This document shows positions 16,966-45,895 of a stretch of 64,000 bases of DNA, piece by piece (the stretch's first letter is position 1; each line of letters starts with the position of its first letter). A program made the position numbers and the translations under genes. Under the pieces are notes generated by a model, which did no database searches, was not told the DNA's origin, and was given only the letters and a program-made list of their open reading frames with translations. This DNA comes from Pseudomonadales bacterium (GTDB lineage Bacteria > Pseudomonadota > Gammaproteobacteria > Pseudomonadales > Azotimanducaceae). Location of the stretch: positions 1 through 64,000 of the forward strand of contig JAKUTH010000003.1 of the NCBI GenBank assembly GCA_022448085.1, in the 5' to 3' direction.

Positions 16966-17811
16966 ATGAAACGAATAGCGTTTTTGCTTGCGTCGTTGGT
17001 ATTGAGTGGATGCGCGAGCATTGTTTCTTCGGTCACAGAGACGCTCGCCGGAGACCTTTCACGTGCGATACTCAATAACGACGATCTCGCTACGGTAAGA
17101 GAGGGTGTTCCCGCTTTCCTAATTGTGCTTGACGCGCTTCTAACCTCTAACCCGGACAATCCAAATCTGTTGACCGCGGCTGCGAGACTGAACGCGTCGT
17201 ACGCGACTGGGTTTGTGGCCGACCAAGCCCGGCAGAGCAAGTTGACCGATAAGGCGATGGGGCTCTCGTACCGGGCAGCATGCAACCGTGTTGATTGGTT
17301 GTGCAACGTGCGCGAAATGCCGTTTCAGGAATTGGAAGCGCGATTGCTTGGCTCGAGACAAAAAGACGTGCCGGCCATATACACGTTTGCCAGCAGTTGG
17401 GCTGGCTGGATTCAGGCGCATAGCGATGATTGGGCCGCGATCGCCGAACTCGCCAGAGTGAAAGCGTTGATGGAGAAAGTTGTTGAACTCGATGCAAATT
17501 ATGATGACGGAGCGGCGGTCATGTATCTTGGTGTTTTTGAGACATTACTTCCGCCTGCTATGGGAGGACGGCCGGAAGTCGGTCGCCGACATTTTGAACG
17601 GGCGATCGAAATTAGCGATGGACGCTACCTCATGGCGAAGGTTCTGTTTGCTGAGAAATACGCGCGGCTCGTTTTTGATCGCCAGTTACACGATACGCTT
17701 CTCACGGAAGTAATGATCGCCGATCCATACGGCGAAGCATTAACACTGATTAACTTGGTGGCTCAGGATCAAGCTGCTGCGTTGCTTAAGAGTGCTGATG
17801 AATATTTTTAG
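16966..17811 (+). CDS. TRAP transporter TatT-type lipoprotein
   Basis: A 281-residue lipoprotein with signal MKRIAFLLASLVLSGC, so Cys16 is the likely lipidated residue. The body is helical with TPR-like repeats (for example NPDNPNLLTAAARLNASYA) and matches the TatT family first described in Treponema, where TatT partners a TRAP periplasmic binding protein. It starts a tightly packed run with DctP, DctQ and DctM. It probably sits in the periplasm on a membrane anchor and hands hydrophobic ligand to DctP (inference from the Treponema system). Confidence 0.85.
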   Translation: MKRIAFLLASLVLSGCASIVSSVTETLAGDLSRAILNNDDLATVREGVPAFLIVLDALLTSNPDNPNLLTAAARLNASYATGFVADQARQSKLTDKAMGLSYRAACNRVDWLCNVREMPFQELEARLLGSRQKDVPAIYTFASSWAGWIQAHSDDWAAIAELARVKALMEKVVELDANYDDGAAVMYLGVFETLLPPAMGGRPEVGRRHFERAIEISDGRYLMAKVLFAEKYARLVFDRQLHDTLLTEVMIADPYGEALTLINLVAQDQAAALLKSADEYF

Positions 17812-18787
17812 GATCCTTTTTTCGCTATGCGCGATGTTTGTGACGTTCCTGGCTGACGGAGCGACGAACTTTAAGATCGCAACGATTTCTCCTGATGGGT
17901 CGTCGTGGATGAAGTTACTCCGCGAAGGTGGTCGTTCGGTCGAACGCGCAACCGAGGGGCGTGTGAAGTTCAAATTCTACCCAGGTGGCGTCAAGGGCGA
18001 CGACCAGACCGTGCTGAAATTGATGCGGGTCGGACAACTCCACGGGGGTATTGTCACGACAGGTGTGTTCAATCGGATCTACCCGGACGTTCAGGTCTAC
18101 AACCTGCCAATGCACTTCCGTACTCCTCAGGAGATCGACCAGGTCCGGACAATGTTGGATCCGGAATTAATGCGCGGCCTTGAGAACGCGGGCTTTGTTT
18201 GCTTTGGCATTGCCGAAGTTGGGATGGCCTATGCTATGGGTAAAAAGCGCGCGACCAGTATCGCCGGTGCCCGCCGATTGAAGGTTTGGACGCCGCAGGG
18301 GGACGAGGCGGCCATGCGGACATTGGTCGCGTTCGGAATTACTCCTATACCCTCGTCGATTGTCAATGTTTTGCCGGGTCTTCAGACAGGTCTGTTCGAC
18401 ACTATTACGACGCCACCCGTGGCGGCGGTGGCGCTTCAATGGCACACGCAGATCAGGTTCGTACTCGATCTGCCGTTAATGTATGTCTATGGTTTGTTTG
18501 TGGTTTCGGCAACCCAGTTCGAGCGGCTGAGCGATGCTGATCAGACGACCTTACGATCGATCATGGCTGACGTTGTCAGACAAGCGGACCGGAAAAATCG
18601 AGCCGATGACATAGCCACATTCGACGTCCTGCTGGCTCAGGGTATAGAGCTTCTGACGCCATCGGACGACGAACGTCGCGAATGGAGGCGCGTTGGGGAA
18701 GAGGCAGCCGAAGAATGGATTGATAGGGGCATTGTTAGCCGAGGTCTTTATCAGCGATTCCAATCGGCGCTTGAGGCGCAGAGATAA
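17798..18787 (+). CDS. TRAP transporter substrate-binding protein DctP
   Basis: About 329 residues. A signal peptide (about 1-22) precedes FKIATISPDGSSWMKLLREG, the usual mature start of DctP proteins. TEGRVKFKFYPGGVKGDDQ is also family-typical, as is LKVWTPQGDEA, with the Arg-rich ligand region before it. ATG 17798 lies inside the TatT gene with a 14-base overlap. It captures the ligand in the periplasm and delivers it to DctQM. The ligand is unknown; TatT-linked systems are thought to carry hydrophobic molecules. Confidence 0.87.
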   Translation: MNIFRILFSLCAMFVTFLADGATNFKIATISPDGSSWMKLLREGGRSVERATEGRVKFKFYPGGVKGDDQTVLKLMRVGQLHGGIVTTGVFNRIYPDVQVYNLPMHFRTPQEIDQVRTMLDPELMRGLENAGFVCFGIAEVGMAYAMGKKRATSIAGARRLKVWTPQGDEAAMRTLVAFGITPIPSSIVNVLPGLQTGLFDTITTPPVAAVALQWHTQIRFVLDLPLMYVYGLFVVSATQFERLSDADQTTLRSIMADVVRQADRKNRADDIATFDVLLAQGIELLTPSDDERREWRRVGEEAAEEWIDRGIVSRGLYQRFQSALEAQR

Positions 18788-18803
18788 CGATTTGTTGGCG
18801 TTT

Positions 18804-19259
18804 ATGCAGCGTTTGCTCGCCCGGCTAGAAATGTATTTGTTGGGCGCACTTTTCCTCACCATGTTGGGTGTTGCCTTCTACCAAGTGATTGCTCGGAATA
18901 TGTTCGGTGGTGGTCTACTTTGGGGAGATGAATTGGTCCGTAATGCTGTGTTATGGGTGACCATGCTCGGTGCTACCTCGGCGGCTGGCACGAACGGTCA
19001 CATTTGCATTGATATCGTCGCCCGATTCGCCGGTGACCGGGCTCGCGCGGTGATCGGTCGTTTCACGAGCCTCTTCACCTCGATTGTTTGTTTGACGTTG
19101 GGGTGGTATTCGATCGACGTACTTTATGGAGATTACCTCTACCAGACCCCGGGATTTGGTCCAATCCCGGCGTGGATCTGCGAGGTGATTATTCCGGTGG
19201 CGGCGTTTACGATGGGGCTGCGGTATTTGATACGGACCGTGAAGCCGGAAACCACGTGA
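18804..19259 (+). CDS. TRAP transporter small permease DctQ
   Basis: About 151 residues from ATG 18804 (TTG 18792 is the alternative); a longer frame reaching back to 18693 overlaps dctP and is not needed. Four hydrophobic segments are visible, with FYQVIARNMFGGGLLWGDEL and TSAAGTNGHICIDI typical of DctQ. It is the small inner-membrane subunit that pairs with DctM. Its stop overlaps the dctM GTG start. Confidence 0.85.
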   Translation: MQRLLARLEMYLLGALFLTMLGVAFYQVIARNMFGGGLLWGDELVRNAVLWVTMLGATSAAGTNGHICIDIVARFAGDRARAVIGRFTSLFTSIVCLTLGWYSIDVLYGDYLYQTPGFGPIPAWICEVIIPVAAFTMGLRYLIRTVKPETT

Positions 19260-20527
19260 TCTGGGTTGGTATCGTGACCGTGATCATGGTGGCGCTCCTT
19301 GGTGCGCCCCTTTTCGCCGTGGTCTTGGCGGCTGCGATGTTGGGATTTCTTGCAACCGACGTGAACTTATCCGTCGTCGCGATTGAGATATACCGAATCA
19401 CCGACACTCCGTTGTTGGTGGCGTTGCCGCTCTTCACATTTGCCGGATACCTAATGGCGGAGGCAAACACTTCGGAACGTCTCATGGCATTGACGCGCGC
19501 CATGTTTGGCTGGATGCCAGCCGGTCTCGCGATAGTGGGGTTTGTCGCCTGCGCCCTGTTTACAGCTCTCACCGGGGCGTCTGGTGTGACCATCGTTGCG
19601 CTCGGTGCCTTACTCCTACCCATGTTGAAAGAGGCGGGCTATAGCGAAAGATATGGTCTCGGGCTCGTCACCACCTCTGGAAGTCTTGGCTTGCTCATCG
19701 TTCCGTCAGTACCACTCATTCTTTATGGCATTGTGGCCCAGCAACTCGATGTCGGTGAATCATTTACCATCCAACAACTCTTTTTGGCGGGATTGTTGCC
19801 TGTCATTTTGATGGTGTCGGCGCTTTCGGCGTGGACTATGTGGCGCCATGGCGACGCAAAACGAACTCGGTTTAGCTCGCGCGAGGTCTGGACAAGCTTG
19901 ACGCAAGCCAAGTGGGAAGTGGCGCTCCCTATCGTCGTGCTTGGAGGCATTTACTCGGGCATATTCGCTATATCTGAGGCCGCCGCACTGACCGCGTTGT
20001 ACGTTATCGTGATCGAGGTATTCGTATACCGCGATGTCGCACTCGCTAAGATCCCAACAGTCATTCGTGACGCGATGGTCATGGTAGGTAGCATCATACT
20101 CATTCTTGGTTGCGCGCTAGCGCTGACGAACTTTTTGGTCGACGCCGAGGTCCCGCAACGACTTTTTGAGGTGATTCAAGAACGCATTTCGAGTCGCGTG
20201 ATGTTTCTGATACTCCTCAACATCTTGCTGTTACTCCTTGGGGCGATACTCGATATATTTTCGGCGATCGTGATCATGGTTCCGCTGATTCTGCCGGTGG
20301 CTATTGGTTACGGTATCCATCCGTTGCATCTCGGCATTATTTTTCTCGCGAATTTACAGATCGGTTATTTCACGCCACCGATAGGTATGAATTTGTTCAT
20401 CGCAAGTTATCGGTTTAATCGACCTGTGCTCGAACTATATGCCGCATGTCTTCCTTTCATGGCGGTCTTACTTCTTGTGCTTCTCCTGATTACGTATATA
20501 CCGGCACTCTCTCTGTGGTTCCTGTAA
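19256..20527 (+). CDS. TRAP transporter large permease DctM
   Basis: A 423-residue polytopic protein, the normal size for DctM, with about 12 membrane segments. Motifs such as TGASGVTIVALGALLLPML and IGMNLFIASYRFNRP near the end are characteristic. The start is GTG 19256, forming a GTGA overlap with dctQ; upstream in-frame sequence inside dctQ is not part of the protein. It is the sodium-driven transport channel of the TRAP system. Confidence 0.88.
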   Translation: MIWVGIVTVIMVALLGAPLFAVVLAAAMLGFLATDVNLSVVAIEIYRITDTPLLVALPLFTFAGYLMAEANTSERLMALTRAMFGWMPAGLAIVGFVACALFTALTGASGVTIVALGALLLPMLKEAGYSERYGLGLVTTSGSLGLLIVPSVPLILYGIVAQQLDVGESFTIQQLFLAGLLPVILMVSALSAWTMWRHGDAKRTRFSSREVWTSLTQAKWEVALPIVVLGGIYSGIFAISEAAALTALYVIVIEVFVYRDVALAKIPTVIRDAMVMVGSIILILGCALALTNFLVDAEVPQRLFEVIQERISSRVMFLILLNILLLLLGAILDIFSAIVIMVPLILPVAIGYGIHPLHLGIIFLANLQIGYFTPPIGMNLFIASYRFNRPVLELYAACLPFMAVLLLVLLLITYIPALSLWFL

Positions 20528-20553
20528 GCTGATTCGCTCGCGTGGTGAAGTCC

Positions 20554-21123
20554 ATGTTTCGAATCGTATTGATAGTTCTGGCGTTCGAATTTGCGATCGG
20601 TAGCGAACCGGAGCGTGTGGTGTCCGAATTTCACGACGAGCTTCTATCTTCAATGAAATCGGATGCCGCATTCGTTGAGCGATACTTGGTTCTCGACGAA
20701 GCGGTCGGAAAGGCGTTTGACGTCGCGACCATTACTCGTATCAGCCTTGGCAAATCCTGGCGCGAACAATCGGCTGAAGAACGGTTTGGTTTTAATGCGT
20801 TATTGCGTGAACTGATCGTCGCGACGTATACAAGCCGATTTTCGAGCTTTAACGATCAAAGCTTTGAGATAATAGAAGCGACTGAGGTTCGAGATGATCG
20901 GTGGGTAGTGAAGACGCATCTTGTGAAGAAAGACGGCGGGATCGTTCGGCTTGATTACTATTTTAGAGACGGTCTTATTTTCAATGTCGTTGCTGATGGC
21001 GTAAGCGATTTGTCGTTGCGCCGTGCTGATTACGCTTCCATTATCGGATCGGAGGGGTTGGACGGGCTAAGACGGAGTATTCGGGACAATATCGAGGAAT
21101 ATCGGTCTTCTGATGCGCATTAG
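20554..21123 (+). CDS. mlaC: MlaC-type periplasmic phospholipid-binding protein
   Basis: About 189 residues with an N-terminal signal (MFRIVLIVLAFEFAIG). The rest matches the MlaC/Ttg2D family, including HpnM of hopanoid clusters: FHDELLSSM, ISLGKSWREQSAEERFGF and RLDYYFRDG. MlaC carries phospholipids across the periplasm between membranes. The start is ATG 20554 or GTG 20542. It follows dctM by under 30 bases and overlaps mlaA by 11, so it belongs to the TRAP operon. No mlaFEDB genes are near. Confidence 0.85.
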   Translation: MFRIVLIVLAFEFAIGSEPERVVSEFHDELLSSMKSDAAFVERYLVLDEAVGKAFDVATITRISLGKSWREQSAEERFGFNALLRELIVATYTSRFSSFNDQSFEIIEATEVRDDRWVVKTHLVKKDGGIVRLDYYFRDGLIFNVVADGVSDLSLRRADYASIIGSEGLDGLRRSIRDNIEEYRSSDAH

Positions 21124-21841
21124 CTTCGTTTCTCCTGCGGTGCTTGTTGCGCTTGCATCCGGCTGTGCCCTTAGTCCCGGTCCCGAATATGCCGTGTACG
21201 ATCCAGTTGAGTCGGTCAATCGACGTTCTTATGAGATCTCCGAAGCGTTGGATCGAGGCGTATTACGGCCGCTCGCGGTCGGATACCGTAAGGTCATGCC
21301 GACATTTGCGGAGCATGCAGTCGAAAACTTTTTTACGAATCTTCGTTCCACGGAAAGTGCTCTCTCGGGTTTTTTGCAGGGAGCCCCGAAGCGTGGGTTT
21401 AGAGATACCGGTCGGTTGTTCGTCAACAGTACCCTTGGCGTTGGCGGCCTACTTGATGTAGCGACGGCGTTGGGGATGGAACCGCAGGGCGAAGATCTTG
21501 GTCAAGTCCTAGCATCGTGGGGGTATACACGGTCGCGCTACTTGTACGTTCCGGTGTTGGGACCAACCACGGTACGTGACCTTCCACACCTCATTGTTCG
21601 TGCGTCACTGCCTCGATTGGCCATGCACGAAAACTACAACGGCTGGGTGGGCACCCTTGATCTCGCCAGCACTCGTGCCGAAGTCCTTATGGATACGGAT
21701 GTGCGGGACGAAACATCTCTAGACCCGTACACGTTCACCCGCGAAGCCTTTTACCAGCGGCGGCGCGATGCCGTGTTTAATGGCGAACCACCTGTTGAGG
21801 CGGGCTTCGATCTTCTGTTAGAGGAATTCGACGAGGAGTAA
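21113..21841 (+). CDS. mlaA: MlaA/VacJ outer-membrane lipoprotein
   Basis: A 242-residue lipoprotein with lipobox LASGC and Cys18 as the likely lipid site. YDPVESVNRRSYEISEALDR and VENFFTNLRS are diagnostic of MlaA, as are GRLFVNSTLGVGGLLDVA and YLYVPVLGPTTVRDL. MlaA forms a ring in the outer membrane through which phospholipids leave or enter the outer leaflet. ATG 21113 overlaps mlaC. With MlaC and the RND protein that follows, this makes an outer-membrane lipid transport set. Confidence 0.9.
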   Translation: MRISFVSPAVLVALASGCALSPGPEYAVYDPVESVNRRSYEISEALDRGVLRPLAVGYRKVMPTFAEHAVENFFTNLRSTESALSGFLQGAPKRGFRDTGRLFVNSTLGVGGLLDVATALGMEPQGEDLGQVLASWGYTRSRYLYVPVLGPTTVRDLPHLIVRASLPRLAMHENYNGWVGTLDLASTRAEVLMDTDVRDETSLDPYTFTREAFYQRRRDAVFNGEPPVEAGFDLLLEEFDEE

Positions 21842-21847
21842 TAGACG

Positions 21848-24424
21848 TTGGATCGAATACTCGCTCGATGGGTTGCTCTGGTCGCTGCATGGCCGTTAAG
21901 TACGCTGCTCTTGATTGGCGTCATAACCGCACTGCTTGGTCACGTATCCGTGACCCAATTCCAAATGAATTCAAATCTGAGCGATCTAATCCGTCAGGAC
22001 GCCCCGTGGAAGGATGATTTTGAGTCGTTCAAATCGCGCTTCCCCCAACTCGTAGATACTGCGGTTGTTGTCGTCAGTGGCACGTCAATGCAGGGGGTGG
22101 AGGACACTTCTAAATCCATCGAGCAGCGGCTCTTGGCGCGACCCGATCTTTTTTCCGACGTTTATTCGCCCATGACGGACCCTTTTTTCCGCGATAACGC
22201 GTTTCTGATGATGGATCTCGATGCCTTGGAGTCGATGGTGGATCGGCTTGCGGAAGCGCAACCAATGCTGACGCGTGTCGCCGAGGACCCCAGTCTACGG
22301 TCGGTTTTTTCGTTGGTTCGTGACGGGCTCGAAAACGAGGCAGAGATTGGTTTCGACCGCGTCCTGAGGATCTTGTCAGATTCGGCGGCATCGGTACTTG
22401 CTGGGGATAACACGCCGGTACGTTGGGCTGACGAGTTCTTTGACAGCGGTGAGAAGCGAATTGTCGGATTGATCATTTTGCGTGGCAAAGTCGATCACAC
22501 GGACGCGCTACCGAACGCACTCATCATGCAAAATCTCAGATTGGAAATAGCCTCCGCCGTCGTTCCTGAGGATATCGACGTCGCTGTAACGGGAGAAATT
22601 GCACTTTCTCACGAGGAAATTACAGCGGCCCAAGACGGCGTCCGCATCGCTGGATTTATTTCCCTAGCCGTTCTACTCCTGGTTTTAGGCGTGGGCATTC
22701 GTTCGGTCCGTATTATCGGTGCGACATTCGCGATGATCGGGATTGGCATTGTCTGGACAACCGGATACGCGCTGCTCACGGTGGGTGAATTTAATACTAT
22801 GTCGATTATTTTCTTGGTCATGTTTTTTGGACTTGGAGTCAGTTCAGCGGTGCATTTCTCGCTACGTTTTCGCGAGGCCATGTATCAAGAACATTTAGCC
22901 CTAAAACCGGCGCTTGAACGAGCGGGCGCGACGGTGGGCAGGGCGATCTTGCTATGCGCGGTGACCACGGCAATTGGATTTATGGGCTTTGCTCCGACCG
23001 ACTATAAAGGTCTTGGAGATCTAGGGATTATTTCCGCTGGCGGCATGATCGTCGCCTTCATTCTTACGTTTACGTTGTTACCGGCAGTGTTTGTATTAGT
23101 CGGAGCGCCAGGTCGAGCGCAAGCTGCGCAAGTCGGCAGCGGCGACCTCGCCATGAAATGGTTGTCCGACCGGCGAACCCCCATTCTCGCCGGGGTTTCT
23201 CTACTGGCGATCGTTGCGACGGTTGTTGGATCAAGGATGTATTTTGACTACAGCGTTCTCGCATTGCGCGACCCAGACTCAGAGTCGATGCGTACGCTCG
23301 CCCTTCTTCAAGAAGAAGAAATTGTGACGGACTACACCCTGTCAATACTCACGCAGGACGAAGACGAAACTCGGAGGCTCGATCGACTTCTGGACCTTCC
23401 GACCGTAGGTAAGATCACGACGCCGTTCGATTACGTACCGAAAGACCAAGACGATAAGCTCTTCCTGCTTGAAGATGCGCAGGCTTTTCTGCTTAGTGCT
23501 CTTGAACCAGGTATCAGTTCCACGCCCCCGACATCGTTAGAACTGGAAGAAGAATTTGAGCTTTTCAAGAAGGCTCTACGACAGAATTCGCTTGCAGATA
23601 GTGATTTGGATCGCGCGCGCGTTCGCCTTTTGGAGGTCGTTGCTCGAATTGAACCGATCTCCCTGGGACAATGGCAAGCGATGGTGATTACGGGTTTGGT
23701 CCAGGAACTTGATTGGCTGCGCCGGGCGATCACGGTCGACGAAAAACAGTTTGGCGACTTACCGGAGAGTTTGCGAAATAGACTCGTAAGTACGGACGGG
23801 GAGTATCTCTCCATGGCGTTACCGGCGCTCGACATCAGCGATGTTACGGAGTTGTCGCGATTTATCGAAGAGGTTCGCGCCGAGGTACCGTTTGCCACCG
23901 GTCGGCCCGTGGTGGAATGGGGCGTTGGTAATGTCGTGGTCGATTCGTTCGTCTGGGCACTGGTCTTCGCCGTTATTGGGATCGGTACCGTATTAGCCAT
24001 TTTTCTGCGGCGTGCACTTACGCCGGTATTGGTCCTCATCCCCTTAGCGCTAACGGCTCTTTTTACGGTTGCCGTTGCCGTATTGATCGACATGCCTCTG
24101 AACATGGCGAATATTCTCGTGATCCCTCTAATATTTGGTTTAGGGGTCGATAACGGAATCCATGTCGTCGAACGGTTTCGTCGGACCGGTGCCGTTACAG
24201 AATTGATGCATTCGAGTACACCGCTCGCGGTCGTTCTGAGCACGCTTACAACCATCGGGACGTTTGCGGCATTGACACTTTCGCCGCATCAAGGAACCGC
24301 GTCGATCGGATATTTGTTAACGCTGGCGGTTTCATTGTTGCTGGTGTTTACGCTGTTCGTCCTACCGTTATTGCTTTCTTTTCAGACGGGAAAGGCGAGT
24401 GACGCGTCATTGTCTGTTTCCTAA
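21848..24424 (+). CDS. MMPL/RND-family exporter, HpnN-like
   Basis: An 858-residue RND-superfamily membrane protein with two repeats, each a periplasmic domain followed by a bundle of membrane helices (first bundle about 255-420, second about 715-850). The helix-4 motif is intact in the second half (GLGVDNGIHVVERFR, Asp near 767). In the first half the corresponding Asp is Ser (GLGVSSAVHFSLRFRE, about 332). HpnN, the closest functional analogue, moves hopanoids to the outer membrane. The start is TTG 21848 with GAGGAG upstream. It ends the TRAP-Mla operon. Confidence 0.85.
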   Translation: MDRILARWVALVAAWPLSTLLLIGVITALLGHVSVTQFQMNSNLSDLIRQDAPWKDDFESFKSRFPQLVDTAVVVVSGTSMQGVEDTSKSIEQRLLARPDLFSDVYSPMTDPFFRDNAFLMMDLDALESMVDRLAEAQPMLTRVAEDPSLRSVFSLVRDGLENEAEIGFDRVLRILSDSAASVLAGDNTPVRWADEFFDSGEKRIVGLIILRGKVDHTDALPNALIMQNLRLEIASAVVPEDIDVAVTGEIALSHEEITAAQDGVRIAGFISLAVLLLVLGVGIRSVRIIGATFAMIGIGIVWTTGYALLTVGEFNTMSIIFLVMFFGLGVSSAVHFSLRFREAMYQEHLALKPALERAGATVGRAILLCAVTTAIGFMGFAPTDYKGLGDLGIISAGGMIVAFILTFTLLPAVFVLVGAPGRAQAAQVGSGDLAMKWLSDRRTPILAGVSLLAIVATVVGSRMYFDYSVLALRDPDSESMRTLALLQEEEIVTDYTLSILTQDEDETRRLDRLLDLPTVGKITTPFDYVPKDQDDKLFLLEDAQAFLLSALEPGISSTPPTSLELEEEFELFKKALRQNSLADSDLDRARVRLLEVVARIEPISLGQWQAMVITGLVQELDWLRRAITVDEKQFGDLPESLRNRLVSTDGEYLSMALPALDISDVTELSRFIEEVRAEVPFATGRPVVEWGVGNVVVDSFVWALVFAVIGIGTVLAIFLRRALTPVLVLIPLALTALFTVAVAVLIDMPLNMANILVIPLIFGLGVDNGIHVVERFRRTGAVTELMHSSTPLAVVLSTLTTIGTFAALTLSPHQGTASIGYLLTLAVSLLLVFTLFVLPLLLSFQTGKASDASLSVS

Positions 24425-27618: not shown

Positions 27619-29544
27619 CTAGGCGGGGGAGGGCTCGACCAGGTCGTCTCCGCGATCGGTTTGGTTATTTGATCGGTCGGGTGACCAATCCCTAGTCGCC
27701 TCTTGCAGGCTTTGTTGGTAATAGAGCTTGGCGTAATGGCCTCCGCGTCGAATGAGCTGGGCGTGATCGCCAGTTTCTGAGATTTCACCTCCATCGAGAA
27801 CGACGATCCGATCTGCATTTCGAATCGTCGACAGCCGATGAGCGATTACGAAACTGATGCGGCCCGACAAGACTTGGTCGAGGCCAACTTGCATCTTAGT
27901 CTCGGTGACCGTGTCGACTGAGCTGGTTGCTTCGTCCATCACCAATATCTGTGGGTCGGCAAGAATCGCTCTTGCGAACGAGACGAGCTGTTTCTGACCT
28001 ACGGATAACATATCACCGTCTTCTCCCACCTCGGTCTGGTAGCCGTTCTCTAGTGCATTAATGAACTCGTGGGCCCCGATGGTTTCTGCGGCATGGATTA
28101 CGTCGTTATCGGAGGCTGTTAAACGGCCATACCGAATATTTTCGAGGACGGTTCCTCGAAAGATGTGCGCATTCTGGAGAACGACGCCGAGGTTAGACTG
28201 GAGCCAACGAAGGCTACGGTTACGGTAGTCGATACCGTCGATAAGGACTTGTCCCGATGTTGGCTGATAGAAACGGCAGACGAGATTAACGAGGGTACTT
28301 TTCCCGCTGCCAGTAGGACCGACGATGGCGATGGTTTCGCCTTTGTGCGCGGTCAGGTTGATGTCGCGGAGGATGGGTACGTCGGCTTCGTAGGCGAAAT
28401 TGACATTCATCAGCTCGACTTTGTGAATATCAAGCGATCCGCCGTCTTCGGCTCGGGTTTCGCGTTGAGGGGTAGATCGATGCATGCGCACGGCGTCCGA
28501 TACGGAAACCGAATCCCTTATAGCGGGTTCAGCATCTATGAGACTTAAGACTCTTTCGGCCGATGCTTGTGCCATCTGCATTTCCGCGAACCAGTACCCC
28601 ATAACTTCCACCGGTTCGAAAAAGTGTCGAGCCAACATCATGAAGGCCACTAACGTCCCGGCTTCGATAATACCGACCAGCAAGTCTGATCCGCCGATTG
28701 CGAGCGTGAGTCCAACCGCCACGCTGCTCATTATTAGGATGATTGGAATATAAATTGCCGACAAGGTGAGGTTTCGGACGGACGCGATGTACATGTCGCC
28801 AGTCAGGTGATGGAATTCGTCTGCATTGGGCGCTTCTCTCGAAAACGTTTTGCTCGTGAGAACTCCCATGATGCCCTGCGCATATGCGCCTGTGATCCTT
28901 GAATTTGTGCGGCGAACGGCACGTGCACTACCGAGAATGGTTCGTTGAAATTTAATCGACACCCAAGTAAGGATTGGGACGATGGCCAACACCAACAAAG
29001 CCAATTTCCAGTTCATCACGAGCATCGCAACGGTCATACCCAGCATGACCGTGACGCCCCAAATGAGATCGAGAAGGCCCCACGCCAGGATGTTTGTGAG
29101 GCGTTCACAGTCGGATGTCATACGCGCCATTAACCAGCCGACGGGCCGATAGTCGAAAAATGAAAACGACAGATTCTGCAAGTTCGCGAATGCCGCTTTC
29201 CGGATGTCGTAACTCGCGTAGACGCGAATTTTCGACGTCATCCAGATGAAACTGCCGATTGAAACTGCCATTAAGAAACAGGTGCCTAAGTAAACTATTG
29301 CCCAGAAAAATAGATCGGCTTCTTGACCGTTCGCGTCGACGTCGTCGATTAACCACTTAGTAATAAGCGGATACGCCATCTCCATGAGCGCAGTCACGCT
29401 TCCAGCGACTACCAACACCCATAATTCGGCCTTGTAGGGGAGAGTAAACGTAAACAAACGACGCCAGAGACTGATTTGCATCGCGGCACTGGATCGTGCT
29501 TCGTCGAAGCCATCGTCATAATTCTCGTCGTCGTAGTTATCCAC
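27619..29544 (-). CDS. ABC exporter half-transporter, canonical ATPase site
   Basis: About 641 residues: an acidic N-terminal stretch (VDNYDDENYDDGFDEA), a six-helix exporter domain (about 40-330) and an ATPase domain. Walker A is GPTGSGKST, the signature is the altered LSVGQKQL, and Walker B is ILVMDEATSSVDT with the catalytic Glu. GTG 29544 overlaps the upstream ABC gene by eight bases, so a frame opening at 29724 is not used. It should pair with the upstream half-transporter as a heterodimer. The cargo is unknown. Confidence 0.88.
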   Translation of the reverse strand: MDNYDDENYDDGFDEARSSAAMQISLWRRLFTFTLPYKAELWVLVVAGSVTALMEMAYPLITKWLIDDVDANGQEADLFFWAIVYLGTCFLMAVSIGSFIWMTSKIRVYASYDIRKAAFANLQNLSFSFFDYRPVGWLMARMTSDCERLTNILAWGLLDLIWGVTVMLGMTVAMLVMNWKLALLVLAIVPILTWVSIKFQRTILGSARAVRRTNSRITGAYAQGIMGVLTSKTFSREAPNADEFHHLTGDMYIASVRNLTLSAIYIPIILIMSSVAVGLTLAIGGSDLLVGIIEAGTLVAFMMLARHFFEPVEVMGYWFAEMQMAQASAERVLSLIDAEPAIRDSVSVSDAVRMHRSTPQRETRAEDGGSLDIHKVELMNVNFAYEADVPILRDINLTAHKGETIAIVGPTGSGKSTLVNLVCRFYQPTSGQVLIDGIDYRNRSLRWLQSNLGVVLQNAHIFRGTVLENIRYGRLTASDNDVIHAAETIGAHEFINALENGYQTEVGEDGDMLSVGQKQLVSFARAILADPQILVMDEATSSVDTVTETKMQVGLDQVLSGRISFVIAHRLSTIRNADRIVVLDGGEISETGDHAQLIRRGGHYAKLYYQQSLQEATRDWSPDRSNNQTDRGDDLVEPSPA

Positions 29545-31360
29545 GGTCCAAGCCCTCGAGATCGTTGCGGATCGACTCGTCGAGGGCACCCTGGATTTCG
29601 CACAGGCGACGATACGGACCTTGCTCTTGCGCAAGTTGTTGATGAGGTCCTTGCTGGACGATGCAGCCGTTGTCCATGACGAGGATACGATCGGCGTTCC
29701 GCACGGTGGTAAGTCGATGAGCAACGATCAGGGTCGTCCGCCGGCCACGACGCTGTTCCAGTGCCGTTAGGATGCGGTGCTCGGTATCCGTATCGACGGC
29801 GGATAGTGAATCATCAAGCACGAGTATGGGCGGATCTTTGAGTAGGGCTCGGGCCAAGGCGACACGTTGTCGTTGACCACCGGATAACGTCACGCCGCGT
29901 TCACCGACCATGGTGTTGTAGCCTTTCGGGAACTTGGATATGGATGCGTGCAACGACGCGTCTTTCGCAGCTTCGAGCAAATCCTCGTGCGGTGCGGCAG
30001 GTCGGCCAACGCGGAGGTTGGAATCAATCGTCTGGGCGTAGAGGAAAGGATCTTGGAGTACCACTCCGATTTGGGAACGAATCCACGCGCGGTCCGTCTC
30101 GTTTATCTCCAAGTCGTCGATCTTTACTTGCCCTCTTTGGTAAGGGTAGAACCGAAGCAGCACGCGGATAAGCGTCGTTTTACCGCAGCCAGGCGGCCCC
30201 ACCAGTGCGACCGTTTCGCCCGAGGCGACCGATAACGACATGTCCCGAAGAATGGCCTGTCCGTTGGGGTAGCTGAAATCTAGGTTGGCAACGGTAATTG
30301 CGCCGGGGCCGCGTCCTATCGTGGGTGTTGGCTCGAAACTCTCCTCGGGCGCGTTAAGGATATGATCAACCCGTCCGAGCGCCACGATAGCTTTGCCAGA
30401 GTCGGTAAGGACTCGCCCCAGGTGGCGAATCGGCCAAATGACCATCGAGACTTGGCTAATAAAGACAAACAGTTCACCGACGGTTAGCGAACCTTCGACG
30501 AGGAATACGCCACCGGCGATCAGCACAATCCCAATCTGGCAGGTCGCGACAAAATCGCTGGAACACCAGTAGACGGCCATGACCTTATTTAACCGGTAGT
30601 AGTTGTCGCGGAATGCTTTATTGCGTTGGCCAAATCGGTCCTGTTCGAAGTCATGGCGAGCAAAAGCCCGAACGACTCGGATACCGGTGAGATTTTCTTT
30701 TAGAACCGCGGTTAGAACGCCTTCCGATGCGTCGGTGATTTCAAACAGTGTCTTAATTCGACGGAAGAACACAAAGGCGCCCACACCCAGCAAGGGCATG
30801 AGACAAATCGACAACCATGCGAGTCGGTAATCACGCCAAAAGAGGACCGGCAACATGGCAGATAAGAGCATCACGGCTCGACCGATCTCGACGACGTGGG
30901 CTTGCAGGAAGACGCGGATGGTTTCAACGTCTGAAGTGCAGCGCTGGACCAAATCGCCGCTGTCGGCCGTATCAAAAAAAGCCGCGGGCAGTCGGTGGAG
31001 GTGTCGGAAAAGTTCCTCGCGCAGTCGTTTTGCTAAGGCTTCAGAAGCGATCGCTGCCCAGCGGCTTTTGAGAAAGCTAAATACCCCCACGAGAAGGGTT
31101 AGGAGCACACCGGCAGAAGCCGACAGCCATAGATACCAAGCAAAAGAGTCCCGTCCACTCCACTCGCGGGTGAGTGAAACGAGGACATTGGTACCGAAGC
31201 TGAAATCCTGGTAGACGACGACATCAAGGGCATACATGCCGACCAACGGAGCGACAATCGTAAAGACGCTCGCCATTCCCATGGCGATTAGGGCAAGGCA
31301 GTAGCGAGCGCGTTGCCCGCGGGTAATGACCCAGAGGCTATTGTTGCCTGTGTTGCTCAC
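29537..31360 (-). CDS. ABC exporter half-transporter, degenerate ATPase site
   Basis: A 607-residue type IV ABC exporter subunit. Six membrane helices come first, then Walker A GPPGCGKTT, signature LSGGQRQR and Walker B ILVLDDSLSAVDT, where Asp replaces the catalytic Glu. This is the usual mark of the degenerate partner in heterodimeric exporters (TM287/288 and BmrCD type). GTG start at 31360. It lies 58 bases after the transglutaminase-like gene and overlaps the canonical partner. Confidence 0.88.
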   Translation of the reverse strand: MSNTGNNSLWVITRGQRARYCLALIAMGMASVFTIVAPLVGMYALDVVVYQDFSFGTNVLVSLTREWSGRDSFAWYLWLSASAGVLLTLLVGVFSFLKSRWAAIASEALAKRLREELFRHLHRLPAAFFDTADSGDLVQRCTSDVETIRVFLQAHVVEIGRAVMLLSAMLPVLFWRDYRLAWLSICLMPLLGVGAFVFFRRIKTLFEITDASEGVLTAVLKENLTGIRVVRAFARHDFEQDRFGQRNKAFRDNYYRLNKVMAVYWCSSDFVATCQIGIVLIAGGVFLVEGSLTVGELFVFISQVSMVIWPIRHLGRVLTDSGKAIVALGRVDHILNAPEESFEPTPTIGRGPGAITVANLDFSYPNGQAILRDMSLSVASGETVALVGPPGCGKTTLIRVLLRFYPYQRGQVKIDDLEINETDRAWIRSQIGVVLQDPFLYAQTIDSNLRVGRPAAPHEDLLEAAKDASLHASISKFPKGYNTMVGERGVTLSGGQRQRVALARALLKDPPILVLDDSLSAVDTDTEHRILTALEQRRGRRTTLIVAHRLTTVRNADRILVMDNGCIVQQGPHQQLAQEQGPYRRLCEIQGALDESIRNDLEGLDRG

Positions 31361-44206: not shown

Positions 44207-45895
44207 ATGCCACGATCAAAATGGCTGTATTTGCCGATGGTGCTCGCTGTGGCGCTTTTAATTGATTGGAGTTCCGAGGGTCCCCTGACTCGTCTGGTGC
44301 TTGGCACCGCGATACTACGCATCAACACGAGTCCTGACGGCGCGAGTGCATTCCTCGACGCAGATCTTATCGGGACCACACCGCTTCGCCATCAGGCGCG
44401 CCCGGGGAAAACGGTGTTGAAGTTGGAACACCCTTTTCATCCGAACTACGTTGAGCGGCTCGAACTCCTTCGTGGCAAAACTAAAGCGCTCGATATCACG
44501 TTGGAGCCGGCGTTTGGAAACCTCGAAATTATCACCAACCCTAAGTCGGCACAGTTGATAGTCGATGGCGAAGAAGTCAACGAGCGAACGCCCGTCAAAC
44601 TATCGGATCTCCCAACGGGTACCCATGACGTGCGCGTTTTTATATACGGGCGCGAGCCGATCACCGAAACGATAGCGGTGACGCCAAACGCGAATATTAC
44701 CCGCACCTATGAACTCGCTCGCGTGCCGATGGGTTCCCTAACGATCGACAAGGTGCCCACAAATGCCACGGCCCGACTCATCGGCATCCGACAACCTTAC
44801 GAACCCCAGATGCTGTTGCCGATCGGAAGTTACGATGTCGAAGTGTCCCATCCAGGCTATACGACCCAGGCATTTCGAATGGCCGTTCGGCAGCAGGCGA
44901 ACACGCGCCGAATTCGGCTAGAAAGGGAATACGGACGATTAAGTTTGTCGATCGCGCCGCCGCAGGCGGTAGTTACCATCCGCTATGACGCGGGTAGTGG
45001 GTTCCGAAATTTTGAGTATTTTGACCGTATGCAGGTGCCTACGGGGAACGTAGTGGTCCGTGCGAAAGCGCTCGGTTACCGAACCTACGAAAGGAACTTG
45101 ACGATGACCATGGTCGGGCTGAACCATAATATCGCAATGAAAATATTCAGGATCACGCCTGGGATTGAGTTCCGAGACAGCTTGCGGGCAGGTGGTGATG
45201 GACCATTGTTGAAAATCTTGAGTGAAGGAAGCTTTGTCATGGGTGCTTCGGATGGCTATCCGGACGAAGGGCCCACGCGTGCCGTCACAGTGACGCAACC
45301 GTTTGCGATTGCCGTCTACGAATTAACTCGAGGTGAATACAATCGGTTCGAAGACTTGGGGGGCGAAGACAGAGTTCCTGCGACCAATTTGAGCTGGGGC
45401 CAGGTCGACGGTTATTTGAGTTGGTTGAGCCGAGAGACGTCCTACACGTATCGATTACCCAGTGAGGCCGAGTGGGAGTACGCGGCGCGTGCTGGGACGA
45501 CGACTGCATATTATTTCGGATCCAACGCCGATCGATTGTGCGAATACGAGAACGTGGGCGATCAATCGATGCGTTCCCAATTCCAGAAAGACACCATCGC
45601 TTCTTGTAACGATGGTGTAATTCGGCTCGCACCCGTCGGAAGCTTTAAACCGAACCCGTTCGGCTTATACGACATGTTGGGGAACGTGCATGAGTGGGTC
45701 GCTGATTGCTGGCACGGAAATCACGAAGGAGCGCCCTCGACTGAGAAGGCCCGGACGAGCGTCTGCAATACGCCAGGACACGTTGTGCGCGGTGGCCATT
45801 GGTTTGCTGCACCTAATGACGCGCGGGTGAGTTTTCGCAATGTCGGGACGAAATCAAGCGGTTCCTTGGGGTTCAGGGTCGTGCGTGAGCTTTAA
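44207..45895 (+). CDS. PEGA-domain protein with formylglycine-enzyme-like C-terminus
   Basis: A 562-residue protein. A membrane segment (about 5-22) is followed by PEGA-type beta repeats (about 35-320; INTSPDGASAFLDADLIGTT and LEIITNPKSAQLIVDGEEV are clear copies). The C-terminal 230 residues match the FGE/SUMF1 fold (YDMLGNVHEWVADCW, VVRGGHWFAAPNDARVSFRN). The active-site cysteines of true FGE are absent from the RGGHW block, so it should not make formylglycine. It probably binds the cell wall or a protein partner at the membrane. Confidence 0.8.
   Translation: MPRSKWLYLPMVLAVALLIDWSSEGPLTRLVLGTAILRINTSPDGASAFLDADLIGTTPLRHQARPGKTVLKLEHPFHPNYVERLELLRGKTKALDITLEPAFGNLEIITNPKSAQLIVDGEEVNERTPVKLSDLPTGTHDVRVFIYGREPITETIAVTPNANITRTYELARVPMGSLTIDKVPTNATARLIGIRQPYEPQMLLPIGSYDVEVSHPGYTTQAFRMAVRQQANTRRIRLEREYGRLSLSIAPPQAVVTIRYDAGSGFRNFEYFDRMQVPTGNVVVRAKALGYRTYERNLTMTMVGLNHNIAMKIFRITPGIEFRDSLRAGGDGPLLKILSEGSFVMGASDGYPDEGPTRAVTVTQPFAIAVYELTRGEYNRFEDLGGEDRVPATNLSWGQVDGYLSWLSRETSYTYRLPSEAEWEYAARAGTTTAYYFGSNADRLCEYENVGDQSMRSQFQKDTIASCNDGVIRLAPVGSFKPNPFGLYDMLGNVHEWVADCWHGNHEGAPSTEKARTSVCNTPGHVVRGGHWFAAPNDARVSFRNVGTKSSGSLGFRVVREL

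What the first reader, a model, noticed from the sequence alone, without database searches (positions are those of the whole stretch)
16966..24424. TRAP transporter of TatT type fused in one operon to MlaC, MlaA and an RND exporter
Seven genes run in one direction with overlaps or gaps of under 30 bases: TatT lipoprotein, DctP, DctQ, DctM, MlaC, MlaA, MMPL/RND. TatT-linked TRAP systems are thought to carry hydrophobic ligands; MlaC/MlaA carry phospholipids; HpnN-like RND proteins carry hopanoids. No MlaFEDB ABC complex is present. The set could be an envelope lipid or sterol transport machine in which a TRAP importer and an RND pump replace the Mla ABC transporter. I know of no described system with this composition.
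Basis: partly seen in the sequence, partly recalled or inferred. Interest (0 to 1): 0.78.

Follow-up and report, generated by a model that had tools for sequence, protein, structure and literature searches.

The report
Two lipid-transport gene sets, one operon
In one family of bacteria, genes for an importer that probably carries oily molecules sit in one row with genes for a hopanoid-style lipid shuttle, and the row has been kept across several genera, although each half can also be found without the other.

Summary
In detail: TatT-DctP-DctQ-DctM-MlaC-MlaA-RND, one strand, gaps of at most 14 bases. The order is conserved in 13 of 61 genomes of its family, 8 genera. The tail is better named: the MlaC is HpnM-like and the RND HpnN-like, both under curated cut-offs; its MlaA forms a clade apart from other MlaAs of the family. 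HpnM-MlaA-HpnN also lies in a hopanoid gene cluster of another family, and a VacJ/MlaA-family lipoprotein in an hpnN operon is already in print. The window's genus (3 MAGs) shows no hopene cyclase, MlaE or MCE match. The front half is a TPAT whose DctP has Trp for the carboxylate-binding Arg (86 of 87). The halves come apart: in one genus, one genome has only the TRAP and another only the triad, between the same flanks. Seven of 13 seven-gene genomes also keep an Mla ABC permease, so replacement is not general. Best reading: a TPAT importer plus an ATP-free lipid shuttle, probably co-transcribed and serving one lipid economy, not one fixed complex.

The parts
16966..17811 (+). tatT: TPAT T-component, TPR lipoprotein (lipobox LSGC, +2 Ala)
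   Evidence: PF16811 239 bits; AlphaFold2 model pLDDT 88, best fold matches 8g52 (titled TPAT family transporter), 3u64 TatT, then 7t1s BstC; lipobox by pattern
17798..18787 (+). dctP: TRAP substrate-binding protein; Trp164 (counted from the ATG at 17798) where canonical TRAP receptors have the carboxylate-binding Arg
   Evidence: PF03480 91 bits; NF037995 252 bits, cut-off 50; alignments
18795..19259 (+). dctQ: TRAP small membrane subunit
   Evidence: PF04290 90 bits
19256..20527 (+). dctM: TRAP large membrane subunit (GTG start, overlaps dctQ by 4)
   Evidence: PF06808 258 bits; TIGR00786 351 bits, cut-off 268
20542..21123 (+). hpnM-like gene of the MlaC family: periplasmic lipid carrier
   Evidence: PF05494 106 bits; TIGR03481 HpnM 138 bits, cut-off 160; PRK15117 MlaC 30 bits; model pLDDT 88, the 12 fold matches at E<=0.001 are MlaC, Ttg2D and similar phospholipid-binding proteins
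21113..21841 (+). mlaA paralogue: lipoprotein (lipobox ASGC, +2 Ala)
   Evidence: PF04333 191 bits; solved MlaA matched at 1.7e-24; clade separate from other MlaAs of the family
21848..24424 (+). HpnN-like RND transporter
   Evidence: TIGR03480 HpnN 681 bits, cut-off 752; solved HpnN 6wu0/5khn E 1e-85 over residues 4-844; Asp768 kept in 26 of 26 readable members of its clade

Best explanation
The operon joins two ATP-free lipid-handling systems. (1) A TPAT: TatT, held at the outer membrane, takes a hydrophobic ligand and hands it to DctP, whose pocket lacks the carboxylate-binding Arg, and DctQM carries it inward on an ion gradient. (2) A triad of the hopanoid-export type: MlaA at the outer membrane, an HpnM-like MlaC-fold carrier in the periplasm and an HpnN-like RND pump in the inner membrane, which moves a lipid between the membranes on the proton gradient without an MlaFEDB ABC complex. 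The two halves are co-transcribed because they serve the same lipid economy (uptake of an oily substrate, and placing or retrieving lipids in the outer membrane), not because they form one fixed complex. Shown: parts, order, conservation, paralogy, separability, absence of MlaE/MCE/cyclase matches in three MAGs of the genus. Inferred: ligand class, localisation, direction of the triad, energy coupling, co-transcription and shared physiology.
For: Order kept in 13 of 61 family genomes in 8 genera (14 with G160, whose contig ends after MlaA), at 39-70% protein identity to the window in ten loci outside its genus. No gap over 196 bases within the seven genes in 25 records, whereas 2.1-5.4 kb lie between RND and YjbQ in all 8 such records outside the genus where YjbQ is on the piece (7 distinct contigs). 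RND tree: linked RNDs and the unlinked ones that also have MlaC and MlaA form one clade (27 rows, SH-aLRT 98), apart from RNDs without MlaA and from the RND beside a cyclase. The operon's MlaA is in a clade apart (98) and HpnM-like MlaC is apart from ordinary MlaC (100). HpnM-MlaA-HpnN lies beside HpnH and HpnA in G396 (L177), with HpnM, HpnN, HpnH and HpnA over their TIGRFAM cut-offs; G265 of the same family (L179) has HpnM and HpnN over cut-off with MlaA between. PMC7157819 (passage): in Burkholderia a VacJ-family lipoprotein of the hpnN operon is said, from unpublished data, to be needed for the pump. DctP Trp in 86 of 87; PMC4646407 (passages): 96.8% of 6142 DctP have Arg, and Tp0957 with Ala has a hydrophobic pocket. 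TPAT model for lipids or aliphatics: PMC5812351 (passages). No MlaE, MCE or cyclase match in 3 of 3 genomes of the genus.
Against: No ligand, transcript or interaction is shown. The flanking genes (ECH, YjbQ, orf131, ACAD) are also kept together in relatives without the triad (L057, L099), so part of the conservation may be a slowly changing neighbourhood. In the window's genus and nearest kin the RND has Ser332 where 20 of 26 readable clade members have Asp. The halves separate in G157, G187, G189 and L144. Two of the 13 seven-gene genomes do have a PF13243 match over its cut-off (G197, 194 bits in a 1270-aa frame; G166, a 35-bit partial match), so cyclase-like proteins are not absent from all. 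In three seven-gene genomes with MlaE (G153, G158, G188) the operon's MlaA is the only MlaA found, so it may serve the ABC system there. Outside the family 0 of 40 HpnN-like loci examined (of 48 places found) had TatT or DctM nearby, and of 33 genomes of other families of the order with a strong TatT none has an MlaC on TatT's contig within 100 kb (several contigs are short).
Confidence: 0.52

Rival explanations
1. One trans-envelope machine: TatT and MlaA share an outer-membrane entry, the HpnM-like carrier passes lipid to or from DctP, and TRAP (inward) and RND (outward) act as two ends of one exchange cycle.
For: Very tight gene packing and 25 of 25 records without an inserted gene; the 14 family genomes in which I saw TRAP and triad joined (G160 cut by a contig end) stand against one, G189, that has both at separate places; no MCE or MlaE match as partner for MlaC in this genus.
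Against: TRAP without triad and triad without TRAP both exist, even between the same flanks within one genus (G187 and G157; the RND of G157 reads in two frames); TatT-DctPQM is complete without the triad across the order.
Confidence: 0.15
2. Neighbours by history only: a TRAP for an ordinary solute and an unrelated envelope-lipid triad have stayed together because this region of the chromosome changes slowly.
For: Flanks ECH, YjbQ, orf131 and ACAD are also conserved without the triad (L057, L099); the seven-gene state needs at least 6 changes on the TRAP tree (in which G160, cut by a contig end, counts as lacking it).
Against: No insertion within the seven genes in 25 records while the next interval is filled in the records outside the genus; DctP lacks the canonical Arg and TatT has the TPAT fold, so an ordinary carboxylate solute is unlikely.
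Confidence: 0.2
3. Detoxification: the triad exports a toxic hydrophobic compound (compare AmeABCD, the tetrapartite HAE3 RND monoterpene exporter of Castellaniella) that the TPAT and the neighbouring acyl-CoA enzymes take up and degrade.
For: RND related to the HAE3 model, though under its cut-off (117 against 352 bits); neighbouring acyl-CoA dehydrogenase-like proteins, enoyl-CoA hydratase and hydrolase; AmeABCD (PMC6394551, abstract and passages); TPATs noted in hydrocarbon degraders (PMC5812351, passages).
Against: The passages seen describe AmeB and AmeC as chaperone-like or COG4447 proteins, not MlaC or MlaA; MlaC-fold proteins are known as phospholipid carriers (titles).
Confidence: 0.1

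Closest known systems
TPAT (TatT-TatP-TatQM) of Treponema pallidum
   Same: TatT fold, SBP without the canonical Arg, genes together, proposed hydrophobic ligand (PMC5812351, PMC4646407, passages)
   Different: Q and M are separate genes; no lipobox found in DctP; Trp instead of Ala at the Arg place; joined to HpnM-like MlaC, MlaA and RND
Hopanoid transport HpnN with HpnM and a VacJ/MlaA-family lipoprotein
   Same: Best NCBIfam hits are HpnM and HpnN; HpnN alignment over almost the full length; triad with MlaA found in a hopanoid gene cluster of another family; VacJ-family lipoprotein in the Burkholderia hpnN operon (PMC7157819, passage)
   Different: Both under the curated cut-offs; no hopene cyclase match in the genome; joined to a TPAT
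Mla system (MlaA-MlaC-MlaFEDB)
   Same: MlaC fold, MlaA family
   Different: No MlaE or MCE match in the genus; MlaA and MlaC of other clades than the ordinary ones sampled; RND in the operon
BstA/BstB/BstC sterol transport of Methylococcus (PMC10942540, passages)
   Same: Also combines an RND like HpnN with a T-component protein (BstC) and a periplasmic binding protein; TatT fold resembles BstC
   Different: BstC is a remote relative (sequence E 0.32); BstB is PhnD-like, not DctP; no TRAP membrane subunits in the passages seen, and the paper's main text does not hold the word MlaC; BstA score 158 against a cut-off of 1400
AmeABCD of Castellaniella (PMC6394551, abstract and passages)
   Same: HAE3 RND encoded with periplasmic and outer-membrane partners
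   Different: AmeB and AmeC described as chaperone-like

Membership tests
TPAT | T-component (TAtT) next to dctP-dctQ-dctM | tested here: met
   PF16811 and DctP/Q/M adjacent; same order in 35 of 37 order-level regions, the other two cut by contig ends
TPAT | SBP without the canonical carboxylate-binding Arg | tested here: met
   Trp in 86 of 87 non-identical DctPs; the exception L108 is a divergent TatT locus
TPAT | TatT trimer binds the SBP and carries hydrophobic ligand | not testable with these tools
   needs a complex and a ligand
Mla system | MlaA and MlaC homologues | tested here: met
   but separate clades
Mla system | MlaFEDB ABC complex with MCE protein | tested here: not met
   MlaE 0 of 3 and MCE 0 of 3 genomes of the genus (MAGs 93-95% complete); MlaF and MlaB not searched
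Hopanoid transporter HpnN/HpnM | score over the curated cut-off | tested here: not met
   HpnN TIGR03480 681 against 752, NF052374 492 against 1100; HpnM 138 against 160
Hopanoid transporter HpnN/HpnM | hopanoid synthesis in the genome | tested here: not met
   PF13243 0 of 3 genomes of the genus
Bst sterol transporter | BstA score over cut-off and BstC relation | tested here: not met
   158 against 1400; BstC sequence E 0.32, fold E 4e-5
RND secondary pump | conserved acidic residues in the transmembrane core | tested here: inconclusive
   Asp768 in 26 of 26 readable clade members; first-repeat Asp replaced by Ser332 in the window's genus and nearest kin; their role as proton relay is recalled

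The most novel reading that the evidence does not exclude
An ATP-free counterpart of the Mla pathway in which a dedicated MlaA and HpnM-like carrier work with two ion-driven inner-membrane transporters, a TRAP inward and an RND outward, to exchange a lipid across the whole envelope; in the window's genus it would be the only MlaA/MlaC-based route left.
Probability: 0.2. Interest if true: 0.8.

Novelty: new variant of a known kind. Interest (0 to 1): 0.5.

Why it matters
The inner-membrane engine for MlaA and MlaC is taken to be the MlaFEDB ABC complex (general knowledge, recalled). This locus, in a genus without any MlaE or MCE match and without a hopene cyclase match, offers a natural test of an RND engine for MlaA and an MlaC-fold carrier. 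It also gives TPATs, whose ligands are unknown (PMC4646407, passage), a genomic link to lipid-moving proteins.

Tried and rejected
Rejected: (a) a sequencing or binning accident: the same order stands in other MAGs of the genus and in seven other genera. (b) A hopanoid operon: no cyclase match, scores under cut-off. (c) A sterol Bst system. (d) MlaA following DctM in G152 and G182 as a remnant of the triad: their MlaA falls outside the triad clade, with the MlaA of G175; only that of G151 falls inside. (e) The RND near DctM in G154 (L105), after a 387-aa gene that looks like a glycosyltransferase by eye (not searched), as the same module: its RND falls in another clade. (f) My first guess of ClpB for the gene between DctM and YjbQ: in L109 and L120, and after the sulfatase-like gene in L146, it is a PAS-GGDEF-EAL protein. 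(g) My first statement that MlaA with HpnN is not in print: on checking, PMC7157819 reports a VacJ-family lipoprotein in the Burkholderia hpnN operon. Led nowhere: Rfam (no match), promoter and terminator scan (at chance). Limits: the lipobox count over loci (63 of 93 TatT, 20 of 35 MlaA) is a lower bound, because starts were taken at the nearest codon. Trees are quick searches with SH-aLRT only, on fetched loci; one search used non-identical RNDs over 500 aa; L169 and L108 are very long rows. The named-genome scan used seeds from four seven-gene RNDs, so its 22 loci lean towards that arrangement. The class search scored at most two candidates a genome; 40 of its 48 places outside the window were examined. 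The sulfatase-like gene was searched in libraries only for L110 and L115; elsewhere it rests on similarity to L115.
Full report
What is there. The window (contig C61 of a 2.66 Mb MAG in 137 contigs, 94.6% complete) carries seven genes on + between 16966 and 24424. Pfam names them TAtT, DctP, DctQ, DctM, MlaC, MlaA and MMPL, each over its cut-off. They overlap or lie at most 14 bases apart. NCBIfam refines two of them: the MlaC is closest to HpnM (138 bits, cut-off 160; ordinary MlaC 30) and the RND to HpnN (681 bits, cut-off 752), so both are relatives, not certified members. The RND aligns over residues 4-844 with the solved HpnN (E about 1e-85). The modelled HpnM-like protein (pLDDT 88) has the MlaC fold: the 12 matches at E 0.001 or better are MlaC, Ttg2D and similar phospholipid-binding proteins. 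The modelled TatT (pLDDT 88) matches 8g52 (titled a TPAT family transporter), TatT of Treponema and, more weakly, the sterol-binding BstC.

Is the order conserved? In the order (145 genomes) 38 have a strong TatT match (E 3e-57 or better). In 37 fetched regions TatT-DctP-DctQ-DctM follow each other in 35, the other two being cut by contig ends. Comparing places, none of the 33 such genomes outside the window's family shows an MlaC on TatT's contig within 100 kb; several of these contigs are short, so this is weak evidence. Inside the family (61 genomes, 37 genera) 49 have a strong TatT match; 13 of them, in 8 genera, have all seven genes in the same order on one strand: G000, G172, G196, G153, G158, G159, G166, G169, G171, G173, G188, G195, G197. 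G160 has the first six up to a contig end. A scan of named genomes with an alignment of four seven-gene RNDs gave 22 loci: 13 with all seven genes, 3 cut by contig ends but agreeing (L145, L150, L152), one with the triad alone (L144), and 5 with RND only or MlaC-RND. In all 25 locus records besides the window the largest gap within the seven is 196 bases, while 2.1-5.4 kb lie between RND and YjbQ in the 8 records outside the genus where YjbQ is on the piece. Against this as proof of function: the flanks (ECH, YjbQ, orf131, ACAD) are also conserved in relatives without the triad (L057, L099).

What the triad is. The RNDs of the linked loci, with the unlinked ones that also have MlaC and MlaA (L144, L161, L164) and two from cut contigs (L150, L175), form one clade of 27 rows (SH-aLRT 98). 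RNDs with MlaC but no MlaA, and the RND beside a hopene cyclase (L169, a long branch), lie outside. The operon's MlaA is likewise in a clade (22 rows, 98) apart from 14 of the 15 other MlaAs sampled from the family, including other copies in G166, G169, G195, G159, G160 and G171; the fifteenth (G175) groups with the MlaA of G152 and G182. The HpnM-like proteins are apart from ordinary MlaC (100, five ordinary rows). So this is a special set, not a stray mlaC. But in G153, G158 and G188, which have MlaE, the operon's MlaA is the only one found, so it may serve both routes there. A precedent was found here: in G396 (L177), of another family of the class, HpnH (545 bits, cut-off 225), HpnM (194/160), MlaA, a glycine-zipper protein, HpnN (TIGR03480 958/752; the stricter NF052374 703/1100 is not met) and HpnA (501/368) lie together; a cyclase was not looked for there. 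L179 (G265, same family) has HpnM and HpnN over cut-off with MlaA and a 168-aa ORF between. In print, a passage of PMC7157819 reports a VacJ-family lipoprotein, which it calls HpnM, as second gene of an hpnN operon in Burkholderia, likely at the outer membrane and needed for the pump (unpublished data of others); so an MlaA-family partner of HpnN is not new. Passages of PMC12583986 name HpnM and HpnN but not MlaA or VacJ. The window's genus has no cyclase match (0 of 3), so its triad probably moves something else. Of all 13 seven-gene genomes two have a PF13243 match over cut-off: G197 (194 bits, in a 1270-aa frame) and G166 (35 bits, partial).

What the TRAP is. DctP residue 164 is Trp where TRAP receptors carry the carboxylate-binding Arg: 86 of 87 non-identical DctPs from TatT loci, the exception being a divergent TatT locus (L108). 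Alignments to solved receptors put the Trp on the Arg. According to PMC4646407 (passages) 96.8% of 6142 such receptors have the Arg, and the Treponema receptor with Ala has a hydrophobic pocket; PMC5812351 (passages) gives the lipid-chaperone model and notes TPATs in hydrocarbon degraders. This Trp is found across the order's TatT loci, not only in the seven-gene ones, so it says nothing on the link to the triad.

Are they one machine? The evidence leans to no. G187 has the TRAP without the triad, and G157 of the same genus has the triad without TatT, both between the same flanks (ECH/LLM on one side, YjbQ/orf131/ACAD on the other); the RND of G157 reads in two frames, so it may be decaying or misassembled. 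G189 has both, at different places. L144 has the triad and its follower gene without TRAP. G039 and G190 have the TRAP directly followed by YjbQ and no MlaC, MlaA or MlaE match. On the TRAP tree the seven-gene state needs at least 6 changes (shuffled mean 11.6, none of 500 as low; G160 counted as lacking it); gain and loss cannot be told apart.

Does it replace Mla? In this genus there is no MlaE match (0 of 3) and no MCE match (0 of 3), and the only MlaC and MlaA found are the operon's, so here the RND is the one inner-membrane partner in sight. But 7 of 13 seven-gene genomes have MlaE and MCE elsewhere (G153, G158, G166, G169, G171, G188, G195). The system is therefore often an addition, and only in some genomes (this genus; G159, G173, G197) without an MCE or MlaE match. 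MAG gaps could account for single absences: G188, of the genus of G159, has both.

Energy. The RND keeps an Asp in the second repeat (Asp768) in 26 of 26 readable clade members; the matching place in the first repeat is Asp in 20 of 26 and Ser in the six sequences of the window's genus and its nearest kin. Proton drive is likely but not tested.

Verdict. A real, conserved gene arrangement, not described in the papers listed (open-licence papers only; most lists capped). It is best read as two neighbouring lipid-transport systems of known kinds in a new combination, with one specially testable point: an RND in place of an ABC engine for MlaA and an MlaC-fold carrier.

Noticed in passing
L115:17050-18798 (+); likewise L104, L110, L112, L116, L117, L146, L149, L155, L174; also L144, L150 and L161: An eighth gene, a 560-620 aa sulfatase-fold protein with weak likeness to LtaS/OpgB-type phosphoglycerol transferases (L110, L115), follows the RND in 12 of 25 seven-gene records (10 distinct contigs), in 8 of them with a 4-base overlap, and stays with the triad in L144 and L161 where no TRAP is beside it. 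It may modify a lipid head group. It is absent beside the window's operon.
   Followed up: partly
L177:5982-13567 (-), L179:5357-9982 (+): HpnM-MlaA-HpnN with a small gene between MlaA and HpnN (in L177 a glycine-zipper protein; in L179 a 168-aa ORF not searched); L177 also has HpnH and HpnA. A possible route of hopanoids to the outer membrane.
   Followed up: partly
L169 (G148:C191): The only one of 61 family genomes whose RND passes the HpnN cut-off has a PF13243 cyclase match beside it.
   Followed up: no
L109:3721-6936, L120:2408-6001, L146:14332-17823: A 1070-1200 aa PAS-GGDEF-EAL protein lies before YjbQ on the opposite strand in three genomes looked at.
   Followed up: no
L108 (G146:C166): A divergent TatT-TRAP locus whose DctP keeps the canonical Arg: a TatT-linked TRAP for carboxylates may exist.
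   Followed up: no
window 27619-31360 (-): Two adjacent ABC-transporter genes; the upstream one scores 405 bits to MsbA (cut-off 602), the other looks alike by eye. Another possible lipid exporter 3 kb from the operon.
   Followed up: no
window 44207-45895 (+): Formylglycine-generating-enzyme-like domain (PF03781) with PEGA domains in one protein.
   Followed up: no
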